From: Anaeromyxobacter dehalogenans 2CP-1
GTDB lineage: Bacteria; Myxococcota; Myxococcia; Myxococcales; Anaeromyxobacteraceae
Reading direction: 5' to 3'
DNA length: 64,000 nt
NCBI RefSeq assembly: GCF_000022145.1
Contig: NC_011891.1
Location: forward strand, 3,392,501-3,456,500
Under the pieces are notes generated by a model. It was not told where the DNA came from. It worked only from the letters and a program-made list of their open reading frames with translations, and searched no databases. Numbering within the stretch: the stretch's first letter is position 1; each line of letters starts with the position of its first letter. Of this stretch, positions 47,481 through 58,084 are shown piece after piece. The translations under genes and the position numbers were made by a program.

Positions 47481-48746
47481 TCAAGGGCGGAACCCTCGGT
47501 CCGGGCTGACCCAGCGCGCCCGCGAGCCGCGGCGCCGCGCCACGACCTTCGGGTAGGCGACCACCGTGGCCGCGCAATTTATCACCCAGAATACGAAGGG
47601 ATACCAGATCATCCAGAAGAGGTTGCGGAACAGCCCGCGGTCGTACCGGCTGTCGAGCCAGGTGCTGAACGCGAACTGGGCCAGGCAGGCGGCGCCCAGG
47701 ACGACGCCGCTCCCCTGCAACCCCATGGGTGATCCGACCGCCGGGAGGACGCCCCCCGGCAGCACCAGACCGACCAGCCAGGTGGCCGTGACCAGCACCA
47801 TGGCGTACGACCAGGCCACGCTGACCACCATCTCGACGAGCAGCGGCCACAGCGACCGCTGCGCCGGCTCGAGCGCCGCGTCGATGTTCTTGAGGAGCAC
47901 CTGGGCGCCGCCCATGGCCCAGCGCAGCCGCTGCTTCCACAGGCCGCGCAGCGTCTCGGGCATGAGGATCCAGGTGAGCGCCCGCGGCTCGAACCGGACG
48001 TCCCACCCGGCGCGCTGCAGCTTCCAGGTGATGTCGATGTCCTCGGTCAACATGTCGGCGCTCCAGTAGCCCACCTGGTGCACCGCCGACTTGCGGAACG
48101 CGGTGATCACGCCGCTGACCGTGAAGATCCTGCCGAACACCCGCTGCGCCCGCTTGATGATGCCGACGATCGACGAGAACTCGCCGACCTGCACGCGCCC
48201 GAGCAGCGTGGAGCGGTTGCGGATCCGCGGGTTGCCGGTCACCGCCGCGACGTCGGGGGACTCGACGAAGTGGCGGACCAGCCAGTGCGCCGCCCTCGGG
48301 TCGAGCAGGGCGTCGCCGTCGATGCAGACGAGGATCTCGTGCCGCGCCAGCAGCGCGCCGGCCTGCAGCCCCATCGCCTTGCCCTGGTTCTCCGCCAGGT
48401 GCACCACCCGCAGGCGCGGGTCGCGCGCCGCCAGCCGCTCCAGCACCGCGCCGGTGTCGTCGCTGCTGCCGTCGTTGATCGCGACCACCTCGAACTCCGG
48501 GTAGTCGAGCGCGAGCGCGTGGCTCACCGTCTCCTCGGCGTTCTCCCCCTCGTTGTACGAGGGGATGAGGACGGTCACCGGCGGCCAGTGCGGGAGCGGC
48601 GGAGGCCGGTCGAGGCTGCGCTCCGCCCGCTCGAAGCGCCAGTAGAACAGCGCCGCGCCGGTCATCCACAGGAAGGACATGAACAGCGGGTAATAGAACA
48701 CGAAGGCCAGCAGGCCTTGCCACGCGCTGTCGAGGGTGGCGGTCAC
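47481..48746 (-). CDS. pgaC: Poly-beta-1,6-N-acetylglucosamine synthase (PgaC)
   Basis: A 421-residue inner-membrane GT2 enzyme: helix at residues 10-35, then the transferase domain with VTVLIPSYNEGENAEETVSH, VVAINDGSSDDTG (D), VCIDGDALLDP (DxD) and MLTEDIDITWKLQRAGW plus the Q-x-x-RW motif QRLRWAMGG, and three C-terminal helices. It polymerises UDP-GlcNAc and exports the chain, with PgaD. Ten bp separate it from pgaB upstream. Start ATG 48746. Confidence 0.94.
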   Translation of the reverse strand: MTATLDSAWQGLLAFVFYYPLFMSFLWMTGAALFYWRFERAERSLDRPPPLPHWPPVTVLIPSYNEGENAEETVSHALALDYPEFEVVAINDGSSDDTGAVLERLAARDPRLRVVHLAENQGKAMGLQAGALLARHEILVCIDGDALLDPRAAHWLVRHFVESPDVAAVTGNPRIRNRSTLLGRVQVGEFSSIVGIIKRAQRVFGRIFTVSGVITAFRKSAVHQVGYWSADMLTEDIDITWKLQRAGWDVRFEPRALTWILMPETLRGLWKQRLRWAMGGAQVLLKNIDAALEPAQRSLWPLLVEMVVSVAWSYAMVLVTATWLVGLVLPGGVLPAVGSPMGLQGSGVVLGAACLAQFAFSTWLDSRYDRGLFRNLFWMIWYPFVFWVINCAATVVAYPKVVARRRGSRARWVSPDRGFRP

Positions 48747-48755
48747 GCGGCGGCC

Positions 48756-50738
48756 TCAGCGAACCGCGGGAGCGTTCGGCTTCGAGTCGAGCACCGGCTT
48801 CAGGACCCGCGGATCGGGCTGCCCGGCGAACAGCGCGTCGGGGTAGTAGCCGACGTGCATGACGCCCATCGCGTAGAGCGAGCGGATGGTCTCGGCGAGC
48901 TCGCGGCTGGGGATGGGCTTGTTGCCGTCGCGCCAGTCCACCGCCTGCAGCTCGAACACGACCTTCTTCATCGCGTCGCGGTACTCGACCGCGCGCACCA
49001 GCTCGTGGAAGAAGGCGGCGTGATCGGCGGCCTTCTCCATGTACGGCATGGCCATGATGGCGGTGAAGTCGTAGCGGGCGATGGAGTTGTCGAGCGCCTG
49101 CGAGTACCAGACCTCCGCCCTGGGGTTGAGCGCCACCCGCGCGTAGAGGTTGCGCGCCACCACCAGCGCGGGCTGCTGCGCGCGCACCGCCGCGGCGGCC
49201 TCCATGGCGAGGTCGTCGATGGCGTTGATCTTGAGGATGGTCCACCGGCCCAGCAGGTCGTCGCTCCGGCGGATCTCCTCGATGCTCCCGGGCAGGCTCC
49301 AGGCCCGGTACTGCGCCAGCGCCGCGGGGCTGGCGTCCTCGTAGTCGGAGAGCGTGGCGTCGTCGTGGAAGAGCAGCCCGTCGAACGGGGCCGAGCGCGC
49401 CAGGTCCTGGTACAGCTCGCGGATCGCCTCGCGCGCCCGCGCCGAGAACGGCGAGAGCCGGTGGTAGCCCATGTTCACGCGGTCGGTGCGGTCGCCGGCC
49501 AGCGTCACCACCTGGTCCTGCGCGGCCGGGTCGCCCTTCGGCAGCTCCCACGCCAGCAGCGGCATCCACGCGTACAGCCGCTTCACCGGCGTGCGCGTCC
49601 GGATCTGCCAGGCCACCCGGTTGAACAGGTCGGCGCGCATCGGCATGCGGCGGGACGGGAAGTACACCGCGTCCGCCGAGCCGTTGCCGTCCGGGTCCGA
49701 GAACGCCTGCAGGTAGACCGCGTTCACGCCCATGGCGGCGATGCGGTCGAGCAGGTGACCGAGGTTGCGCTCCTGCTGCGCCGGATCCGGGTCGTACACG
49801 TAGTCCAGGTCCACGTGCATGACCTTCTGCGGGCGGTCGTTGTCGGAGAGGTCCGCGTTGCGGATGGCGATCTCGCGCTCGACGTCCCAGAGCGCCATCC
49901 CGCCCTCGACCAGGATGCGGCGCAGGCCCCACAGCGGCGTGTCGCGGGTGTTCGCGCCGTCGTCCAGCGTCAGGCCGACGCGCATCCCGAGCCGCTCGGC
50001 GGTCTCCCGCGTGGTCGCGTTGTAGCGCCCGTAGGGCCAGGCGACGACGCGCGGCGCCCGGCCGGTGTTGCGCCGGATGAGCGCCACGCTGCGCTCCAGG
50101 TCCGCCTGGACGCGCCGGCGATAGGTGGCCTCGTCCTCGTAGCGCCGCGCGCCCGCGTCGTAGCGTCGCGTGGTCCCGGCCGGCTCCAGGTTGCCCTGCG
50201 GATTGCCCAGGATGCCCTTGTGCAGGTCGAAGCTGTGGCTGCCCACCTCGACCAGGCCGCTGGCGGCGAGCTCGCGCAGCTCGCTCCAGGAGAGGAGCCG
50301 CTCCCGCGGCAGCTTCTTGCCGTCGAAGTCGACGGTCCCCTTCTCCTCGAGCCACCCGGCCACCACGTTGATGACCGCCGGGATGCGGAACATCTTCAGG
50401 ACCGGCCAGGCGTTCCGGTAGACCGACTGGTACGCGTCGTCGAAGGTGACGAGCACCGCCTTCGGCGGCAGCGGCCGGCGCCCCTCGCGCGCCGCCAGCA
50501 GGTCGTCCACCGAGACGAAGCGGTAGCCGTGGTTGCGGAGCCAGTCCATCTGCCGCAGGAAGGCGGTCGGCGAGACGGCGTACTGCGGGACCAGCGCCTC
50601 CGCGCGATCCGCCACCTCGTGATAGCTGAGGATGGTCAGCTCCTCCTCGGTCGCCGCGAGGGTCCGCGAGGCGGGCAGCGCGGCGGCGGCGAGCAGCAGC
50701 GCCGCGGCGGCGGGGAGTGACACGGGTCGCAGGGTCAT
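48756..50738 (-). CDS. pgaB: PNAG N-deacetylase (PgaB)
   Basis: A 660-residue protein. Signal at residues 5-28, then the NodB polysaccharide deacetylase domain (TILSYHEVAD, VTFDDAYQSVY with metal Asp, EVGSHSFDLHKG with two metal His, RVVAWPYGRYN) to about 290, and a C-terminal TIM-barrel hydrolase domain (HVDLDYVYDPDP, FDGLLFHDDATLSDYED) typical of PgaB, which binds and cuts dPNAG. It partly deacetylates the polymer before export. The signal lacks an obvious lipobox Cys, unlike E. coli. First gene of pgaBCD; no pgaA outer-membrane porin is adjacent. Start ATG 50738. Confidence 0.93.
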   Translation of the reverse strand: MTLRPVSLPAAAALLLAAAALPASRTLAATEEELTILSYHEVADRAEALVPQYAVSPTAFLRQMDWLRNHGYRFVSVDDLLAAREGRRPLPPKAVLVTFDDAYQSVYRNAWPVLKMFRIPAVINVVAGWLEEKGTVDFDGKKLPRERLLSWSELRELAASGLVEVGSHSFDLHKGILGNPQGNLEPAGTTRRYDAGARRYEDEATYRRRVQADLERSVALIRRNTGRAPRVVAWPYGRYNATTRETAERLGMRVGLTLDDGANTRDTPLWGLRRILVEGGMALWDVEREIAIRNADLSDNDRPQKVMHVDLDYVYDPDPAQQERNLGHLLDRIAAMGVNAVYLQAFSDPDGNGSADAVYFPSRRMPMRADLFNRVAWQIRTRTPVKRLYAWMPLLAWELPKGDPAAQDQVVTLAGDRTDRVNMGYHRLSPFSARAREAIRELYQDLARSAPFDGLLFHDDATLSDYEDASPAALAQYRAWSLPGSIEEIRRSDDLLGRWTILKINAIDDLAMEAAAAVRAQQPALVVARNLYARVALNPRAEVWYSQALDNSIARYDFTAIMAMPYMEKAADHAAFFHELVRAVEYRDAMKKVVFELQAVDWRDGNKPIPSRELAETIRSLYAMGVMHVGYYPDALFAGQPDPRVLKPVLDSKPNAPAVR

Positions 50739-51155
50739 CGGGTCGGGAACGTCGGCAGGGACGAGGAATTCCGGGCGGCGTACGGCGCTCGCCCCTTGGC
50801 GGGAGGAGGCCACCCGCGGGCCGGCATGATCAGCAGGTTGGTCGGGAGGCGTCAAGGACGCGCCCGGACGGCCAGGCAGCCGCTGGCCCGCTCGGTGCGC
50901 GCTGGCCACCTGACGCAGGAGCCCGCCGCGCCATTCAACGGCGCGTCCGGCGCTCCGGCGCGCGACCACGCGGCCGCGAGCGAGGTGGGCTTGCGGCGGC
51001 GAATGTGCGGGCTCCTCCCATCGCCCGATATCGCGGCCCCATCTTTGTCCCGCGAACATACGACGAACGCACGAACCGGTTCGCGGGGACCGCGCTCCAT
51101 CTCCTCTGCCGGCGGGGCGCCCGGCATCCACGCGAGGGGTGAAGGGCGAGGTTCC
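50739..51155. other. 417-bp divergent control region with an inverted repeat
   Basis: Lies between pgaB and the divergent nine-heme lipoprotein. CCCGCGAAC (51048-51056) and GTTCGCGGG (51078-51086) form a perfect 9-bp inverted repeat with a 21-bp spacer, about 80 bp before the cytochrome start, suitable for a dimeric regulator. No gene is supported here. Confidence 0.5.
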
Positions 51156-53105
51156 ATGAGACGAGGCATGATCTTGGCCGCGGTCGCGGCGGGCGCGCTC
51201 GCGTCCGCCTGCGGCGGCGGCTCCGGCTCGGATGCGGGCAGCGCCGCCGACGCAGCCAGGAGCGCGGCCACCGGCGTCACCGGGACGGTCCGCGACACCG
51301 CCGGCGCGCCGATCGCTGGCGCCGTGGTGAGCGACGGCCAGCGCTCCGCCACGAGCGGATCCGACGGCTCCTACGCGCTCGCCGAGCGCGCGGGCACCGT
51401 CACGCTGACCGCCTCCAGGGCGGGCTACGCCAGCGCGACGCAGACGGTCGGCGTTCCGAAGCGCGGCGCCGTGCAGGTGGACTGGGCGCTCGCGCCCACC
51501 GCGCCGCCGCCGCCGTCGGGCGGCGCGGTCCGCGTGTTCGCGAACAACGATCTCGGGATGCACTGCGTGGACCGGAGCTTCGCGGTGTTCTCGATCCTGC
51601 CCCCGTACAACGTGGTGAACGCGCAGGTGGTCGCGCTCCAGGCGAGCGGCAAGCCGGTGCTCCTCGACGCCTCGCAGGTGGACCTGCGCTACGCGGCGAT
51701 CGCGGACGCGACCGGCTCCATCAACTCCACGAGCAAGGGCAAGACCGACTTCTGGACCTACGCGGCCACGCTGTACGGCGCCGCCCTGCCGGAGGGCGCC
51801 GGCCTGATGGGCCTGTGGATGCCGGCCGACGCGCCGGACGCGCGCGGCACCACGCTGTCCTGGGACGCCGGCCTGGGCCTGTTCCACGCGCCGGGCATCC
51901 CCATCCTGCCGATCGACGACGCCGGGCGGACCAACCCCTACCCGCTCCTGCGCTTCTCCGCGTACGACAAGGCCGGCACCGCGCTCGCCGCCACCGACGT
52001 GGTGCTGCCGGTCTCCGACGAGACCTCCTGCCAGAACTGCCACGCGACCGGCAAGGTGGCCGCGGCGGAGCCGGGGATCGCCTGGTCCGCGGACCCCGAC
52101 CTGGAGGCGCAGGCGCGCCAGAACGTGCTCGCGCTCCACGACGCGGAGCACGGCACCGCGCTCCGGCAGCAGGCGCCGGTGCTCTGCGCCTCGTGCCACT
52201 ACTCGCCCGCGCTCGACCTCGCCGGCACGGGGCCCTCGCCGCAGCAGGCGCTGCACCCGACCATGTCGAGCGTGATGCACGGCTTCCACGCCGACAAGGT
52301 GGCCGGGCTGTGGGACGCGCCCGTCCCGGTGGGCGGCACGATCCCGCCCGCGGCGCAGCAGGCCTGCTACCAGTGCCACCCCGGCGCGCAGACGCAGTGC
52401 CTGCGCGGCGCCATGAGCTCGAAGCTCGCCTGCCAGAACTGCCACGGCGACATGGCCGCCGTGGGCGGCGCGATCCCGCTCCTCGCGGGCGGCAGCGTCG
52501 ACGGGACCGGCGACGGCGCCTCCCGCCGCCCGTGGAGGGACGAGCCGAGGTGCCAGAGCTGCCACGCGAACGACGCGGTCTCGAAGACCACGCTGGCGAG
52601 CGCGCCGCCGCTCGCGGCGGACGGGCTGCGCTTCAACGAGGGGTTCCGCGCGGGCGATCCCTCCGCGTCGCCCATCCTGGCCTCGAACCGGCGCTTCGCC
52701 GAGGAGCCGGGCAAGCTGTACCGGCACAGCAAGGGCCACGGCGGGCTCGCCTGCGAGGCGTGCCACGGCAGCACGCACGCGATCTGGTCCGGCAACGCGA
52801 ACGACGACGTGGCCGCCACCCAGCTGCAGGGCCACGCCGGCACGGTGGGCGAGTGCAGCACCTGCCACCTGTCGCCGCCGACCATGGGCCTGGGCGGCCC
52901 ACACGGCATGCACCCGGTGGGCGACGCCTGGGTGCGGGCCCACGGCGCGGTGGCGGAGGCCGACCTGACCGCGTGCCAGGCGTGCCACGGGACCGACTAC
53001 CGCGGCACCGTGCTCTCGCGCATGTTCGCGACGCGCACGCTGATGGGCCGGACGCTGACCGCCGGCACGCCGGTGGGCTGCTTCCACTGCCACAACGGTC
53101 CGTGA
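51156..53105 (+). CDS. Nine-heme c-type cytochrome lipoprotein with N-terminal carboxypeptidase-regulatory-like domain
   Basis: A 649-residue protein. Signal and lipobox (LAAVAAGALASAC), then a carboxypeptidase-regulatory-like beta domain (VTGTVRDTAGAPIAGAVVSD, GSYALAERAGTVTLTASR). From residue ~120 comes a region with DLGMHCVDRSFAVFSILPPY and no heme, then nine CxxCH motifs: CQNCH, CASCH, CYQCH, CQNCH, CQSCH, CEACH, CSTCH, CQACH, CFHCH. It is likely an outer-surface or periplasm-facing electron carrier, distinct from the OmcA/MtrC type. ATG 51156 has a GAAGGGCGAGG upstream. No partner cytochromes adjacent. Confidence 0.87.
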   Translation: MRRGMILAAVAAGALASACGGGSGSDAGSAADAARSAATGVTGTVRDTAGAPIAGAVVSDGQRSATSGSDGSYALAERAGTVTLTASRAGYASATQTVGVPKRGAVQVDWALAPTAPPPPSGGAVRVFANNDLGMHCVDRSFAVFSILPPYNVVNAQVVALQASGKPVLLDASQVDLRYAAIADATGSINSTSKGKTDFWTYAATLYGAALPEGAGLMGLWMPADAPDARGTTLSWDAGLGLFHAPGIPILPIDDAGRTNPYPLLRFSAYDKAGTALAATDVVLPVSDETSCQNCHATGKVAAAEPGIAWSADPDLEAQARQNVLALHDAEHGTALRQQAPVLCASCHYSPALDLAGTGPSPQQALHPTMSSVMHGFHADKVAGLWDAPVPVGGTIPPAAQQACYQCHPGAQTQCLRGAMSSKLACQNCHGDMAAVGGAIPLLAGGSVDGTGDGASRRPWRDEPRCQSCHANDAVSKTTLASAPPLAADGLRFNEGFRAGDPSASPILASNRRFAEEPGKLYRHSKGHGGLACEACHGSTHAIWSGNANDDVAATQLQGHAGTVGECSTCHLSPPTMGLGGPHGMHPVGDAWVRAHGAVAEADLTACQACHGTDYRGTVLSRMFATRTLMGRTLTAGTPVGCFHCHNGP

Positions 53106-54632: not shown

Positions 54633-56447
54633 TCAGGCGCCGGCGTCGCGCAGCGCGCGGGCGATGGCCGCGGCGTCCGGCGTCCGGCGCGGCACCTCGA
54701 GCGGATCGCAGCGCGCCTCGGGCGGCCCGCACACCGGGCAGTCCGGGGCGCGCGCCGGCGTGAGCCACACCGACTGGTACGCGCCCTGCCCCGGCGTGTC
54801 ACCGAACACCTGCGGGTAGAACCAGTAGCCGGGCACGGTCGAGAGCGTGAGGTAGGTGGCGCCGGACGCGATCACCTGCTCCGCGAACGGCCCCGGCCCG
54901 GCGTCGCCCTCCGGCGCCAGCAGCGCCAGCGCCAGCTTCGCCGCGGCGCTCGCCACGTGCTGCACGTCGGCGGCGAGCGCGACCTCGCCCCGCAGCCGCC
55001 CGGTGCCGTAGTCCAGCTCGCGCGCCACCCGGCCGCCGGCGCGCTCCAGCCCGTGGCGGCTCCGGGTCGCGCACAGGTAGCACGCGGTCCGGCCCGGGAC
55101 CGTGAGGATCACCTCGCCGCCCTGCGCGCCCGCGTACAGGCCCACGAACAGCGCCGGGCGCCCGCGCGCGTACGCGAAGCGGTCGAGGGCGCGCTGCGCC
55201 GCGGGATCGTCGGTGGCGGCGAGCACGAGGTCCGCCTCGCGCACCCGCGCGTCCAGCGCCGCCGGCGGGAGCCCGTCCACCGCGCGCGGCTCGAGCGCCA
55301 GCGCGATCGACGGCTCCACGGCGAGCAACCGCCGGGCCAGCGCCTCCGGCTTCGACCGGCCCACGTCCTCGGCGGCGAACACGGTGCGCGAGAGGTTCGC
55401 GGGCTCCACCACCTCCGGATCGAGGAGCGCGAGCCGCCCCACGCCGGCCCGCGCCAGCAGCTCGGCCAGGTACGAGCCCACCGACCCGCACCCGGCCACC
55501 AGCACGGCGCGCTCGCGCAGCGCCTCGGGCAGCCGCGCCGCGCTCCGCGCGCGCAGCCCGCCGCGCCGCGCCGCCTCGCGCGCCTCCGGGCCGCCGTCCG
55601 CGAGCCGCGCGGTCCACCCCGCCAGCCGTGCTCGTCCCGGGTCGCGCGTCAGCGCCGGGCCGCCGGGTGGCCCGTACGCGCGCCGGCGCGGGCCGCGCCC
55701 CTCCAGCACCGCCGCGAGCGCGGCGGCGAGCCGCTCGTCCTCGGCGAGCGCGAGCGGCCACGAGAGCGCGAGCTGGCCGCTGGCCTCGCGCTCGCCGGCG
55801 GCGAGCGCCACCGGCGGCAGCGCCGGGTAGTGCTCGCCGGCGAGCACCAGCAGCTCGCCGCCGCCGTCGAGGCGCAGGCGACCGGCCAGCAGCGGCCCCT
55901 CGCCGGCGTCGGTGACGAACGGCTCGGCGCGTCCGCCGCCGAGCGCCTGCGCGGCGCGCTCCAGGTCGCGGAGCAGCGGGATGGCGCGGAGCGGCTCCGG
56001 GGCGACCTCGGCGCCGCCGCCCCGGCTCCGGCGCGCGGCGAACAGCGAGAGCTTCCCGCGCGCCAGCGCCACCTCGTGCGCGCCCAGGCCGGCGGGCGGC
56101 TCGAGCGAGACGATCGGGCCCAGATAGCAGGCGAGGTGCGGGTTGTGCGCGAGCCCGGCGGCGAGCTCGCGCGCGTCCTGGGCCGAGGGCTGGTCGAGGG
56201 CGCCGGGGTGCGAGTGCACCAGCCCCTTCAGCTCCAGCCCCTCGCCGCGCTCGAGCGCGGTGACCCGCTCCCCCAGCCCGGCCGACGGCGCCCACCGGCT
56301 CGCGCTGGCGTGCGCCCCCGGATCCGGCTCGAATCGGGTGACGAGCGGCCGCCCCGGCGGACCGAGCAGCGCGCCGCCGCGCTCCGGCGGATGGCCGCCG
56401 AGCTCCGCGTCGAGGGCGCGGAGGACCCAGTCGGCCACGCACCACAC
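54633..56447 (-). CDS. JAB (JAMM) - E2-like - E1 (ThiF) fusion of a ubiquitin-like system
   Basis: A 604-residue fusion from GTG 56447. Residues 1-130: JAMM isopeptidase, with Glu22 (PERGGALLG), His78/His80 (LVHSHPG), Ser88 and Asp91 all present. Residues 190-252: E2-like segment (LLVLAGEHYPALPPVALAA) with the Y-P-x-x-P-P motif, but GQLALSW where an active E2 has G-x-x-C-L. Residues 300-600: E1/ThiF domain, VLVAGCGSVGSYLAEL, LLDPEVVEPANLSR, VGRSKPEA, and zinc Cys pairs CYLC (456) and CPVC (570). It should adenylate a modifier C-terminus and also trim or remove it. Third gene of the E2/small-protein set. Confidence 0.87.
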   Translation of the reverse strand: MWCVADWVLRALDAELGGHPPERGGALLGPPGRPLVTRFEPDPGAHASASRWAPSAGLGERVTALERGEGLELKGLVHSHPGALDQPSAQDARELAAGLAHNPHLACYLGPIVSLEPPAGLGAHEVALARGKLSLFAARRSRGGGAEVAPEPLRAIPLLRDLERAAQALGGGRAEPFVTDAGEGPLLAGRLRLDGGGELLVLAGEHYPALPPVALAAGEREASGQLALSWPLALAEDERLAAALAAVLEGRGPRRRAYGPPGGPALTRDPGRARLAGWTARLADGGPEAREAARRGGLRARSAARLPEALRERAVLVAGCGSVGSYLAELLARAGVGRLALLDPEVVEPANLSRTVFAAEDVGRSKPEALARRLLAVEPSIALALEPRAVDGLPPAALDARVREADLVLAATDDPAAQRALDRFAYARGRPALFVGLYAGAQGGEVILTVPGRTACYLCATRSRHGLERAGGRVARELDYGTGRLRGEVALAADVQHVASAAAKLALALLAPEGDAGPGPFAEQVIASGATYLTLSTVPGYWFYPQVFGDTPGQGAYQSVWLTPARAPDCPVCGPPEARCDPLEVPRRTPDAAAIARALRDAGA

Positions 56448-56461
56448 GCGCCGCCCTGCCG

Positions 56462-56650
56462 TTACGCGAACACCGCCGGGTGCACCCTCGACAGCATGCG
56501 CTGCTCGGCGTCGCCCTGCTCCACGCCGATCACCACCCGGCCGTCCGGCGTCACCCACACCCGGCCGCGCGCCTCCGGCGCCCGGGGGCCCGGGTCGCGC
56601 CGCTCGTCCCGCATCGCCTCGCGAAGTCGTTCGAGAACCGTCTGCGACAT
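56462..56650 (-). CDS. Small protein (62 aa) between E2 and JAB-E1
   Basis: A 62-residue protein starting MSQTVLERLREAMRD, with GGAGGAGG at ideal spacing before ATG 56650. An N-terminal amphipathic helix is followed by VWVTPDGRVVIGVEQG (two strands) and a short helix ending HPAVFA. Position, 34 bp after the E2 stop and 14 bp before the JAB-E1 start, shows it is part of the operon. It is too short and lacks the C-terminal glycine expected of a ubiquitin-like modifier, so an adaptor or target is more likely. Not recognised. Confidence 0.75.
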   Translation of the reverse strand: MSQTVLERLREAMRDERRDPGPRAPEARGRVWVTPDGRVVIGVEQGDAEQRMLSRVHPAVFA

Positions 56651-56684
56651 GCCTGCCTCCTCCGGAGCCCCGCATGCGCGGGGG

Positions 56685-57065
56685 CTAGAACGGGAACCGC
56701 CCCTCGCGCGCGAACACGCTGAAGCCGTTGCACCACAGGACGCTGCGCGCGTACGCGTCCTCCAGCGACTCCATCCCGCCCCCGGCGTCGCTCGAGAGGC
56801 ACAGCCGCCCGTCGGGGAAGACGTGGCAGGCGTGCGGATCGAAGCGCCCCAGGACCTGCGGCTCGACCAGCTTCACCTGGTAGCCGGCCCCGTCGAACCA
56901 GAGGAACAGCTGGTACGGATCGCCCAGCTCGCTGACGATCGGGAACAGCCAGCCGCTCACCCCCTCCACCGCGAGGTAGCGGGTGCTCGACGGGAGGCTC
57001 CCCTCCGCCCGCGCCCGATCGCGGAGCACCCGGCCGAAGCCGTCGACGAAGCAGGCGAGGCCCAT
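56685..57065 (-). CDS. E2-like (ubiquitin-conjugating-fold) protein
   Basis: A 126-residue protein from ATG 57065 (a GTG at 57101 could add 12 residues). Middle strands LFPIVSELGDPYQLFLWFDG, GYQVKLVEPQVLGRF and the loop HACHVFPDGRLCLSSD give the E2 layout, with Cys89 after DGRL in the place of the active-site cysteine; a helix LEDAYARSVLWCNGFSVFA follows. This is the pattern of prokaryotic E2 families found beside E1 and JAB proteins. It probably carries a modifier as thioester from the E1 at 54633 to its target. It starts 126 bp after the DUF815 gene. Confidence 0.82.
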   Translation of the reverse strand: MGLACFVDGFGRVLRDRARAEGSLPSSTRYLAVEGVSGWLFPIVSELGDPYQLFLWFDGAGYQVKLVEPQVLGRFDPHACHVFPDGRLCLSSDAGGGMESLEDAYARSVLWCNGFSVFAREGRFPF

Positions 57066-57190: not shown

Positions 57191-58084
57191 TCAGGATCCC
57201 CGCTGCTGCTCCATGACGCTGCGGCCCACCCAGTCGCAGGCGAACTGGTAGGCGATGCGGCCGCTGCGGTCGCCCTTGCGCTGCGACCAGAGCACCGCCG
57301 CGGTCTCCGCCTCGCGCGTCCAGGGCACGTTCACGCCGGTGCGCTCGCACAGCTTCCCCGCCCAGCGCCGCGCCACGTCGACGTAGAGGTCCTGGCTGAA
57401 GGTGTGGAACCCGACCCACAGGCCGAAGCGCCCGGACAGCGAGATCTTCTCCTCCACCGCCTCGCCGTGGTGGATCTCGCCCTCGACCATCATGGCGCCG
57501 CGGTTGTCGCTCTCGTACTCCGGCACGAGGTGCCGGCGGTTCGAGGTGACGTAGATGAGGACGTTTTCGGGCAGCGCGTACACCGAGCCGTCGAGCGCGC
57601 TCTTCAGCACCTTGTAGCTCGCGTCGCCGGGCCCGAAGGACAGGTCGTCGGAGAACAGCACGAACCGGTACGGCTGGCCCTTCACCGCGTCCACGATGGC
57701 GGGCAGGCTCACCAGGTCGTCCTTGTCCACCTGGATGATGCGCAGGCCGCGGTCCGCGTAGGCGTGCAGGAGCGCCCGCACCAGCGACGACTTGCCGGTG
57801 CCGCGCACGCCCCAGAGCAGGGCGTTGTTGGCCGGCAGGCCGGCCAGGAACTGGCGGGTGTTGTCCTCCAGCGCCTTCTTCTGCGGCTCGATGCCGAGCA
57901 GGTCCTCGAGGCGGATGCCCTCGATGCTGGGGACCGGCTCCAGGGTCCCGGCGAAGGTGCTGCGGTGCCAGTTGGCGGCGTGGCAGGCGGCCCAGTCGAC
58001 GGGCACCGCGGGCCGGGGGAGCAGCGGCTCCACCGCCGCCAGCACCCGCTTCAGCCGCTCGATCAGCTCGGGGTCGAGGCTCAT
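57191..58084 (-). CDS. DUF815-family ATPase (AAA-like)
   Basis: A 297-residue ATPase with Walker A in ALLWGVRGTGKSSLVRALLH (about residues 87-106), Walker B-like FVLFSDDLSF, sensor-1 VLIYVTSNRRHL and a C-terminal KISLSGRFGLWVGFHTFSQD. This is the DUF815 protein common in proteobacteria, with unknown role. ATG 58084 has GGAGGG. It lies upstream of, and on the same strand as, the E2 gene, so co-transcription is possible, but it is widespread without E1/E2 genes and a terminator-like hairpin precedes it. Confidence 0.9.
   Translation of the reverse strand: MSLDPELIERLKRVLAAVEPLLPRPAVPVDWAACHAANWHRSTFAGTLEPVPSIEGIRLEDLLGIEPQKKALEDNTRQFLAGLPANNALLWGVRGTGKSSLVRALLHAYADRGLRIIQVDKDDLVSLPAIVDAVKGQPYRFVLFSDDLSFGPGDASYKVLKSALDGSVYALPENVLIYVTSNRRHLVPEYESDNRGAMMVEGEIHHGEAVEEKISLSGRFGLWVGFHTFSQDLYVDVARRWAGKLCERTGVNVPWTREAETAAVLWSQRKGDRSGRIAYQFACDWVGRSVMEQQRGS

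What the first reader, a model, noticed from the sequence alone, without database searches (positions are those of the whole stretch)
54633..57065. Compact ubiquitin-like conjugation locus: E2, 62-aa protein and a JAB/E2-like/E1 fusion
Seen: an E2-like gene, a tiny gene and a 604-residue fusion with intact JAMM residues and an intact adenylating domain, spaced by 34 and 14 bp on one strand. Known: bacterial E1/E2/JAB sets (Cap2-Cap3 in CBASS, Bil/Bub systems) conjugate a modifier to proteins and often defend against phage. Here JAB and E1 are one chain, the E2 is separate, and no modifier, nucleotidyltransferase or effector is visible. The layout differs from the CBASS and Bil layouts I know and could be a new branch.
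Basis: partly seen in the sequence, partly recalled or inferred. Interest (0 to 1): 0.9.

Follow-up and report, generated by a model that had tools for sequence, protein, structure and literature searches.

The report
Compact bacterial ubiquitin-like conjugation cassette
Three adjacent bacterial genes encode a small ubiquitin-like tagging machine (an activating and tag-removing enzyme in one protein, a separate transfer enzyme, and a 62-residue protein that may itself be the tag); if that protein is the tag, it would be only the second known tag of this kind that is not built like ubiquitin.

Summary
On the minus strand lie an E2-fold protein (126 aa, His81/Cys89 invariant), a 62-aa protein, and a 604-aa JAMM protease / E2-RWD-like / E1 fusion, spaced 34 and 14 bp. 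The cassette is real and self-contained: all nine loci compared (the window and eight related genomes) share only these genes, in several different chromosomal settings. Two distant relatives (Planctomycetota and Hyphomicrobiales MAGs) carry the same modules, with the 62-aa module ahead of the E2. Predicted structures match CBASS E2 (Z 9.9), MoeB/ThiF/UBA5 and the whole Bub-system JAB-E1 protein (BubCD). Differences: no beta-grasp Ubl, a Cys-bearing E2, an extra domain between JAB and E1, and an E1 with no invariant cysteine outside its zinc site. The missing modifier may be the 62-aa protein: its last two residues, Phe61-Ala62, are invariant in 11/11 aligned sequences, 6 of 10 free-standing copies stop exactly there, and CBASS already uses a non-beta-grasp modifier ending in Gly or Ala. 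This is an inference, unproven. An anti-phage role is unsupported: the cassette is genus-wide and has no conserved defence-gene neighbours.

The parts
56685..57065 (-). E2-like (UBC-fold) protein, 126 aa; His81 (codon 56825-56823) and catalytic-type Cys89 (codon 56801-56799) in HVFPDGRLCL
   Evidence: H81 and C89 invariant in 14 relatives. AF2 model of the L038 homologue matches E2/UEV folds, best CBASS CdnG-E2 Z 9.9. Four of nine weak PDB sequence hits are ubiquitin-conjugating enzymes, the best aligned at the H..G.xC motif. PADLOC E2 E=0.002 for the L037 homologue.
56462..56650 (-). 62-aa protein, candidate modifier; invariant terminal Phe61-Ala62 (codons 56470-56465) followed directly by the stop
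   Evidence: Found with confidence only in genomes carrying the cassette, between E2 and the fusion; coding by dN/dS; F61-A62 invariant in 11/11; 6 of 10 free copies end at this Ala, others add AP, APRS, AGQG or APLR; fused ahead of E2 in L038 and, across a frameshift, L039. No Pfam/NCBIfam/PADLOC/PHROGs match.
54633..56447 (-). 604-aa JAMM - E2/RWD-like - E1 fusion
   Evidence: Prok-JAB 1.9e-11 and ThiF 1.4e-30; AF2 model matches MoeB Z 27.2, ThiF, UBA5, and Citrobacter BubCD over model residues 2-590.
56028..56447 (-). JAMM (JAB) protease domain, residues 1-140; metal-site motif E22, H78-x-H80, D91
   Evidence: Prok-JAB; motif read directly.
55698..55976 (-). E2/RWD/UEV-like domain without a cysteine (residues 158-250; YPxxPP motif)
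   Evidence: Inferred from predicted secondary structure and motif; no profile relation to the active E2.
54633..55574 (-). E1 adenylation domain (residues 292-604) with zinc pairs C456/C459 and C570/C573
55002..55013 (-). Crossover-loop motif D479-Y480-G481-T482 (D-Y-G-[T/S]), in the loop where E1s carry their catalytic cysteine
   Evidence: D479, Y480, G481 invariant in 11 sequences, position 482 T or S, no invariant Cys outside the zinc pairs; loop 473-490 is low-confidence in the model. Catalytic role inferred.

Best explanation
This is a self-contained, reversible ubiquitin-like conjugation cassette. Shown by sequence or predicted fold: an E1 adenylation domain, a separate Cys-bearing E2, and a JAMM protease fused to the E1. 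Inferred: the E1 domain adenylates the C-terminal alanine of the 62-aa protein (any short tail first trimmed by the JAMM domain). The acyl group reaches Cys89 of the E2, either directly or via a crossover-loop hydroxyl residue, because the E1 has no conserved catalytic cysteine. The E2 attaches it to a target, and the JAMM domain removes it. The target is unknown; a housekeeping or stress role fits the genus-wide presence at least as well as phage defence. My confidence is about 0.85 that this is a conjugation/deconjugation enzyme set and about 0.4 that the 62-aa protein is the modifier; the figure given is for the whole statement.
For: Conserved enzymatic residues and folds. The three genes are the only ones shared by all nine loci compared, in several unrelated chromosomal contexts. 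The 62-aa gene was found with confidence only where the cassette is. Its last two residues are invariant (11/11) while the stop position floats by 0-4 residues, as in modifier precursors. The module is fused N-terminally to E2 in L038 and, across a frameshift, L039, as Iyer et al. 2006 report for Ubl and E2-like domains in type 6e operons (PMC1779556). CBASS proves that an E1/E2/JAMM set can use a non-beta-grasp modifier whose C-terminal residue is Gly or Ala (PMC10097602). No other modifier candidate is encoded in the cassette, and the beta-grasp carriers examined in the genome belong to other pathways.
Against: Nine of the eleven aligned 62-aa sequences come from one bacterial family, so conservation may reflect limited divergence. 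The E2 C-terminus (FPF) is conserved as well, so an invariant end is not unique to modifiers. In the L038 model the end of the 62-aa module is helical (residues 59-66), as for a docking element, and fusion to E2 also fits a permanent accessory domain. L039 needs a frameshift to join the module and E2. A trans-encoded beta-grasp modifier cannot be excluded. No activity has been measured.
Confidence: 0.42

Rival explanations
1. The enzymes form a conjugation system, but the 62-aa protein is an accessory: an E2 N-terminal docking element (like the UBE2M N-terminal extension that binds the NEDD8 E1) now encoded as a separate gene. The modifier is a protein elsewhere in the genome.
For: In L038 and (across a frameshift) L039 the module precedes the E2, and its conserved end is predicted as a helix. 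UBE2M extensions dock on E1 (PMC12355090). Four ThiS/MoaD-type matches exist in the genome.
Against: It leaves a self-contained cassette without a modifier. Two of the carriers sit with thiG or as a MoaD-MoaE fusion and a third lies beside another E1-like match. It does not explain why the free protein stops at the same Ala in 6 of 10 copies.
Confidence: 0.35
2. It is a degenerate or reduced Bub (type 6e) system whose multi-beta-grasp BubA was lost or moved and whose chemistry is otherwise Bub-like.
For: JAMM fused N-terminally to E1, separate E2, whole-chain match to BubCD. An E1 without an invariant catalytic Cys recalls the oxyester chemistry reported for Bub (Ye et al. 2026; recalled, paper not held).
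Against: The E2 keeps an invariant Cys. No Multi_ubiq domain was found in the genome (though its control genomes were silent too, so this is weak). The 62-aa module has no homologue in the family libraries searched. E1 sequence similarity is greater to MccB, MoeB, UBA5 and Cap2 than to BubCD.
Confidence: 0.12
3. A peptide-modification (RiPP- or microcin-C-like) pathway: the E1 domain activates the C-terminus of the 62-aa precursor to make a small product, with JAMM as maturation protease.
For: MccB is the closest solved E1 by sequence (E 3e-22); the 62-aa gene has precursor size.
Against: MccB similarity is confined to the adenylation core, and MoeB and UBA5 score about equally. An E2-fold protein with an invariant His/Cys has no role in microcin C synthesis, and no transporter or tailoring gene is conserved at the loci.
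Confidence: 0.05
4. A sulfur-carrier system (thiocarboxylate on a MoaD/ThiS-like protein, with JAMM trimming) for cofactor or amino-acid biosynthesis.
For: JAMM and ThiF/MoeB-type E1 pairs occur in such pathways (PMC1779556 rows 4a-4d).
Against: No carrier and no rhodanese in the cassette, and a dedicated E2.
Confidence: 0.03

Closest known systems
Bub (bacterial ubiquitination-like) systems / Iyer et al. 2006 operon type 6e (BubCD-BubB-BubA; PDB 9ea4, 9eae, 9eav)
   Same: JAMM fused to the N-terminus of E1; E2-like protein as a separate gene or fused to the modifier; whole-chain structural match.
   Different: No multi-beta-grasp BubA; E2 has an invariant Cys; extra E2/RWD-like domain between JAMM and E1; unique 62-aa protein; no capW/capH/capK-type regulator was noticed at the loci examined (not searched systematically).
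Type II CBASS Cap2/Cap3 and stand-alone CBASS E2 (CdnG-E2, 8yjy)
   Same: E1, E2, JAMM; the E2 fold is closest to CdnG-E2 (Z 9.9); precedent for a non-beta-grasp modifier ending in Gly/Ala.
   Different: No CD-NTase, no cyclic-nucleotide effector, no E1-E2 fusion; JAMM and E1 share one chain.
Bil (BilABCD)
   Same: E1, separate Cys-E2 and JAMM (recalled).
   Different: JAMM and E1 are fused here; no BilA-type double beta-grasp modifier.
MoeB/ThiF with JAMM, sulfur-carrier operons (rows 4a-4d of Iyer 2006)
   Same: Adenylation core and zinc site (Z about 27).
   Different: No carrier, no rhodanese; has an E2.

Membership tests
Bub / type 6e system | JAMM (or other protease) domain fused to the N-terminus of an E1 domain | tested here: met
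Bub / type 6e system | Separate E2-fold protein in the operon | tested here: met
Bub / type 6e system | BubA-type protein with one to three beta-grasp domains in the operon | tested here: not met
   Only the three cassette genes are shared by all loci; the 62-aa protein has no family match and its homologue is predicted alpha-beta-beta-alpha. Genome-wide absence of Multi_ubiq is weak because the control was silent.
Bub / type 6e system | Oxyester intermediates on E1 and E2 | not testable with these tools
   E1 lacks an invariant catalytic Cys but E2 has one; chemistry not measurable here; Bub chemistry recalled, not read
Type II CBASS | CD-NTase and effector in the operon | tested here: not met
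   No such gene is conserved beside the cassette; contrast a true CBASS locus, L082
Type II CBASS | E1-E2 fusion (Cap2) with separate JAMM (Cap3) | tested here: not met
   JAMM is fused to E1 and E2 is separate
Bil | BilA double beta-grasp modifier and separate JAMM gene | tested here: not met
E2 (UBC) enzymes | UBC fold with catalytic Cys and nearby His | tested here: met
   Predicted fold; H81 and C89 invariant
E2 (UBC) enzymes | Forms a thioester with a modifier | not testable with these tools
   Needs biochemistry
E1 superfamily | Adenylation residues and zinc site | tested here: met
E1 superfamily (thioester-forming branch) | Conserved catalytic Cys in the crossover loop | tested here: not met
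   Invariant Cys are only the two CxxC zinc pairs
JAMM/JAB peptidases | E..HxH..D metal-binding motif | tested here: met
   E22, H78, H80, D91
ThiS/MoaD sulfur-carrier pathway | Beta-grasp carrier adjacent to the E1 | tested here: not met
   The matches to PF02597 in the genome lie 0.6 Mb or more away

The most novel reading that the evidence does not exclude
The 62-aa protein is a non-beta-grasp protein modifier with a C-terminal alanine, activated by a cysteine-less E1, passed to a Cys-E2 and removed or trimmed by the fused JAMM domain: a very small modifier and the second non-ubiquitin-fold one after CBASS cGAS.
Probability: 0.38. Interest if true: 0.85.

Novelty: new variant of a known kind. 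Interest (0 to 1): 0.6.

Why it matters
[quoted passage not shown] This cassette is a compact, directly testable candidate: three genes, one possible modifier, one E2, one E1/JAMM chain. It would also give an E1 that works without a conserved catalytic cysteine while its E2 keeps one, between Bub (oxyester, recalled) and thioester systems. Even if the 62-aa protein is only an accessory, the family is a conserved E1/E2/JAMM set whose E2 and 62-aa proteins no searched family library names.

Tried and rejected
1) Sulfur-carrier biosynthesis: no rhodanese and no carrier in the cassette; carriers examined in the genome belong elsewhere. 2) Planctomycetota loci L058-L061 carry a small protein, then E2, JAMM and E1, which first looked like an independent parallel for a small modifier; the small protein's other homologues (L075-L080) are CxxC-type small proteins in mobile-element-like backbones without detectable E1/E2/JAMM genes, so I dropped that argument. 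3) Middle domain of the fusion as a homologue of the active E2: no profile signal. 4) Viral contigs: two scans, no relatives. Plasmids: no full-length relative; of the four partial hits of the fusion, one inspected is a CBASS Cap2 and one a ThiF in an ectB/ATP-grasp biosynthetic cluster; E2: none. Phages: only partial E1-core matches. 5) Conserved neighbours: none beyond the cassette. 6) RNA elements and promoter/terminator consensus: none. 7) Mapping the DYG[T/S] motif to BubCD Tyr370 (mutated in PDB 9eav): no sequence alignment reached that region, so this stays a lead. 9) The key Bub and Bil papers are not held.

Full report
**Where it is.** The window is part of a complete 5,029,329-bp single-contig genome. 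The size equals that of Anaeromyxobacter dehalogenans 2CP-1 (recalled); named relatives found are Anaeromyxobacter species, and G002 is a 5,013,479-bp chromosome whose fusion is 92% identical.

**Checking the observation.** The three ORFs lie on the minus strand: an E2-like gene 57065..56685 (126 aa), a 62-aa gene 56650..56462, and a 604-aa fusion 56447..54633. The gaps are 34 and 14 bp. Pfam finds Prok-JAB (1.9e-11, residues 7-99) and ThiF (1.4e-30, residues 308-463) in the fusion and nothing in the two small proteins. The small genes are real: they are conserved as protein in the related cassettes (the E2 of G011 is split by a frameshift). Differences to two relatives concentrate at codon position 3, and dN/dS is 0.16-0.43.

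**Anatomy of the fusion.** The JAMM motif is complete (E22, H78-x-H80, D91). The E1 part keeps the nucleotide-binding and catalytic residues (GxGxxG, NLSR, K366, D413/D414) and both CxxC zinc pairs. In an 11-sequence alignment the only invariant cysteines are those four zinc ligands. In the flexible crossover loop, where E1s carry their catalytic cysteine, the family has D-Y-G-[T/S] instead (loop of low confidence in the model). By sequence the E1 domain is nearest MccB, MoeB, UBA5/6 and ThiF, with Cap2 lower. By predicted fold it is nearest MoeB (Z 27.2), ThiF and UBA5; Citrobacter BubCD, a JAMM-E1 fusion, matches over the whole chain, residues 2-590, with a large rmsd that suggests a different placement of the domains. 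Between the two enzymes lies a domain predicted as helix, four strands, helix with a YPxxPP motif and no cysteine. It looks like an inactive E2/RWD/UEV domain, but no profile relation to the active E2 was found, so that label is an inference.

**The E2.** His81 and Cys89 are invariant in 14 relatives. The model of the Planctomycetota homologue (mean pLDDT 80) gives only E2-fold or E2-complex entries in the listed rows of the structural alignment: the CBASS CdnG-E2 complex (Z 9.9), Tsg101 UEV (8.6), UFC1 (7.5), UBE2W (7.0) and BubCD-BubB (6.8). Foldseek alone gave weak E-values, so the fold rests on the aligner's consistent list plus the active-site motif. An E2 profile against PDB sequences put ubiquitin-conjugating enzymes at the top, aligned at H-x7-C, at weak E-values (0.4 and up).

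**The cassette as a unit.** In Myxococcota, 10 of 195 genomes carry the E2, all in Anaeromyxobacter (8 of 9; the ninth is 66% complete) or one related genus. The 62-aa protein is found with confidence in exactly the same 10 genomes out of 99 searched. Nine loci compared share no other gene family; the flanks fall into several different chromosomal settings. Beyond the family, two MAG contigs hold divergent members. In L038 (Planctomycetota) the 62-aa module and E2 are one 198-aa protein, an E2/RWD-like-E1 protein follows, and then the JAMM protein. In L039 (Hyphomicrobiales) a JAMM protein is followed by a 62-aa module and an E2 in different frames, then E1. The modules are thus long-standing partners whose fusions vary.

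**Is the 62-aa protein the modifier?** Eight positions are invariant in 11 sequences: M1, V33, G37, G42, L53, S54, F61, A62. Two of them are the last two residues of the window protein. Of ten free-standing copies, six stop right after this alanine and four add two to four residues (AP, APRS, AGQG, APLR). This is the pattern of modifier precursors with a trimmed tail. Three further points fit. First, CBASS shows that an E1/E2/JAMM set can conjugate a protein without the ubiquitin fold, and its C-terminal residue is Gly or Ala (PMC10097602). Second, in type 6e operons the Ubl is sometimes fused ahead of an E2-like domain and otherwise encoded beside it (PMC1779556), which is how the 62-aa module behaves here. 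Third, the cassette has no other candidate, and the beta-grasp carriers I inspected in the genome serve thiamine (beside thiG) and molybdopterin (MoaD-MoaE fusion).

**Evidence against the modifier reading.** The sampling is narrow (nine of eleven aligned sequences from one family). The E2 C-terminus is also conserved. The conserved end is predicted helical in the fusion. An E1-docking extension like that of UBE2M would explain fusion to E2 as well. I hold the modifier reading at about 0.4 and the docking reading at about 0.35.

**Comparison with known systems.** The nearest architecture is Bub / type 6e (JAMM fused to E1, separate E2), not CBASS or Bil. Membership is not claimed, because the multi-beta-grasp modifier is missing from the cassette; the E2 also keeps its cysteine. 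The Bub chemistry (oxyesters) is recalled from the abstract of Ye et al. 2026, which is cited in PMC13373217 but was not readable here. [quoted passage not shown]

**Function.** Nothing here points specifically to phage defence. The cassette is present in all well-covered genomes of the genus and no other gene is conserved beside it. PADLOC hits are generic E1/E2/JAB models. A regulatory or stress-related protein modification is at least as likely.

**Verdict.** This is a real, conserved new variant of bacterial ubiquitin-like conjugation systems. The point worth testing is whether the 62-aa protein is a non-ubiquitin modifier.

Noticed in passing
L058-L061 (Planctomycetota G495, G584), e.g. 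L059 4864-9739: Two copies per genome of an E2-JAMM-E1 operon; in L058 and L059 it lies downstream of what looks like a diversity-generating retroelement (Avd-like 115 aa, formylglycine-enzyme-like variable protein, reverse transcriptase 361 aa) inside mobile-element-like DNA. The E2 belongs to the same broad family as the window's E2.
   Followed up: partly
L075-L080: Family of about 68-aa CxxC..CWxC small proteins, apparently in planctomycete mobile-element backbones; one branch that has lost most of the Cys sits beside the E2-JAMM-E1 operon.
   Followed up: partly
L108 7742-8133 (G011): E2 gene split by one frameshift in an otherwise intact cassette; sequencing error, decay or programmed shift not distinguished.
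   Followed up: no
L039 2880-3466: 62-aa module and E2 lie in different, overlapping frames; probable frameshift in the MAG or two overlapping genes. Nearby genes look like a resolvase and a group II intron-type maturase.
   Followed up: no
window 57191-58084 (-): DUF815 AAA+ ATPase just upstream of the E2 gene; shared only with the close relative G002 among the loci compared, so not part of the cassette.
   Followed up: yes
window 50796-53105 (+): 769-aa ORF with several CxxCH motifs (multihaem cytochrome-like) and an apparent lipoprotein-type start inside it.
   Followed up: no
window 47481-50700 (-): Glycosyltransferase next to a polysaccharide deacetylase-like protein, reminiscent of a PgaC/PgaB-type exopolysaccharide operon.
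   Followed up: no
G000:C1:4065930-4066736: MoeB-like E1 next to a ThiS/MoaD-type carrier; possibly the Anaeromyxobacter operon listed as row 4b in Iyer et al. 2006.
   Followed up: partly
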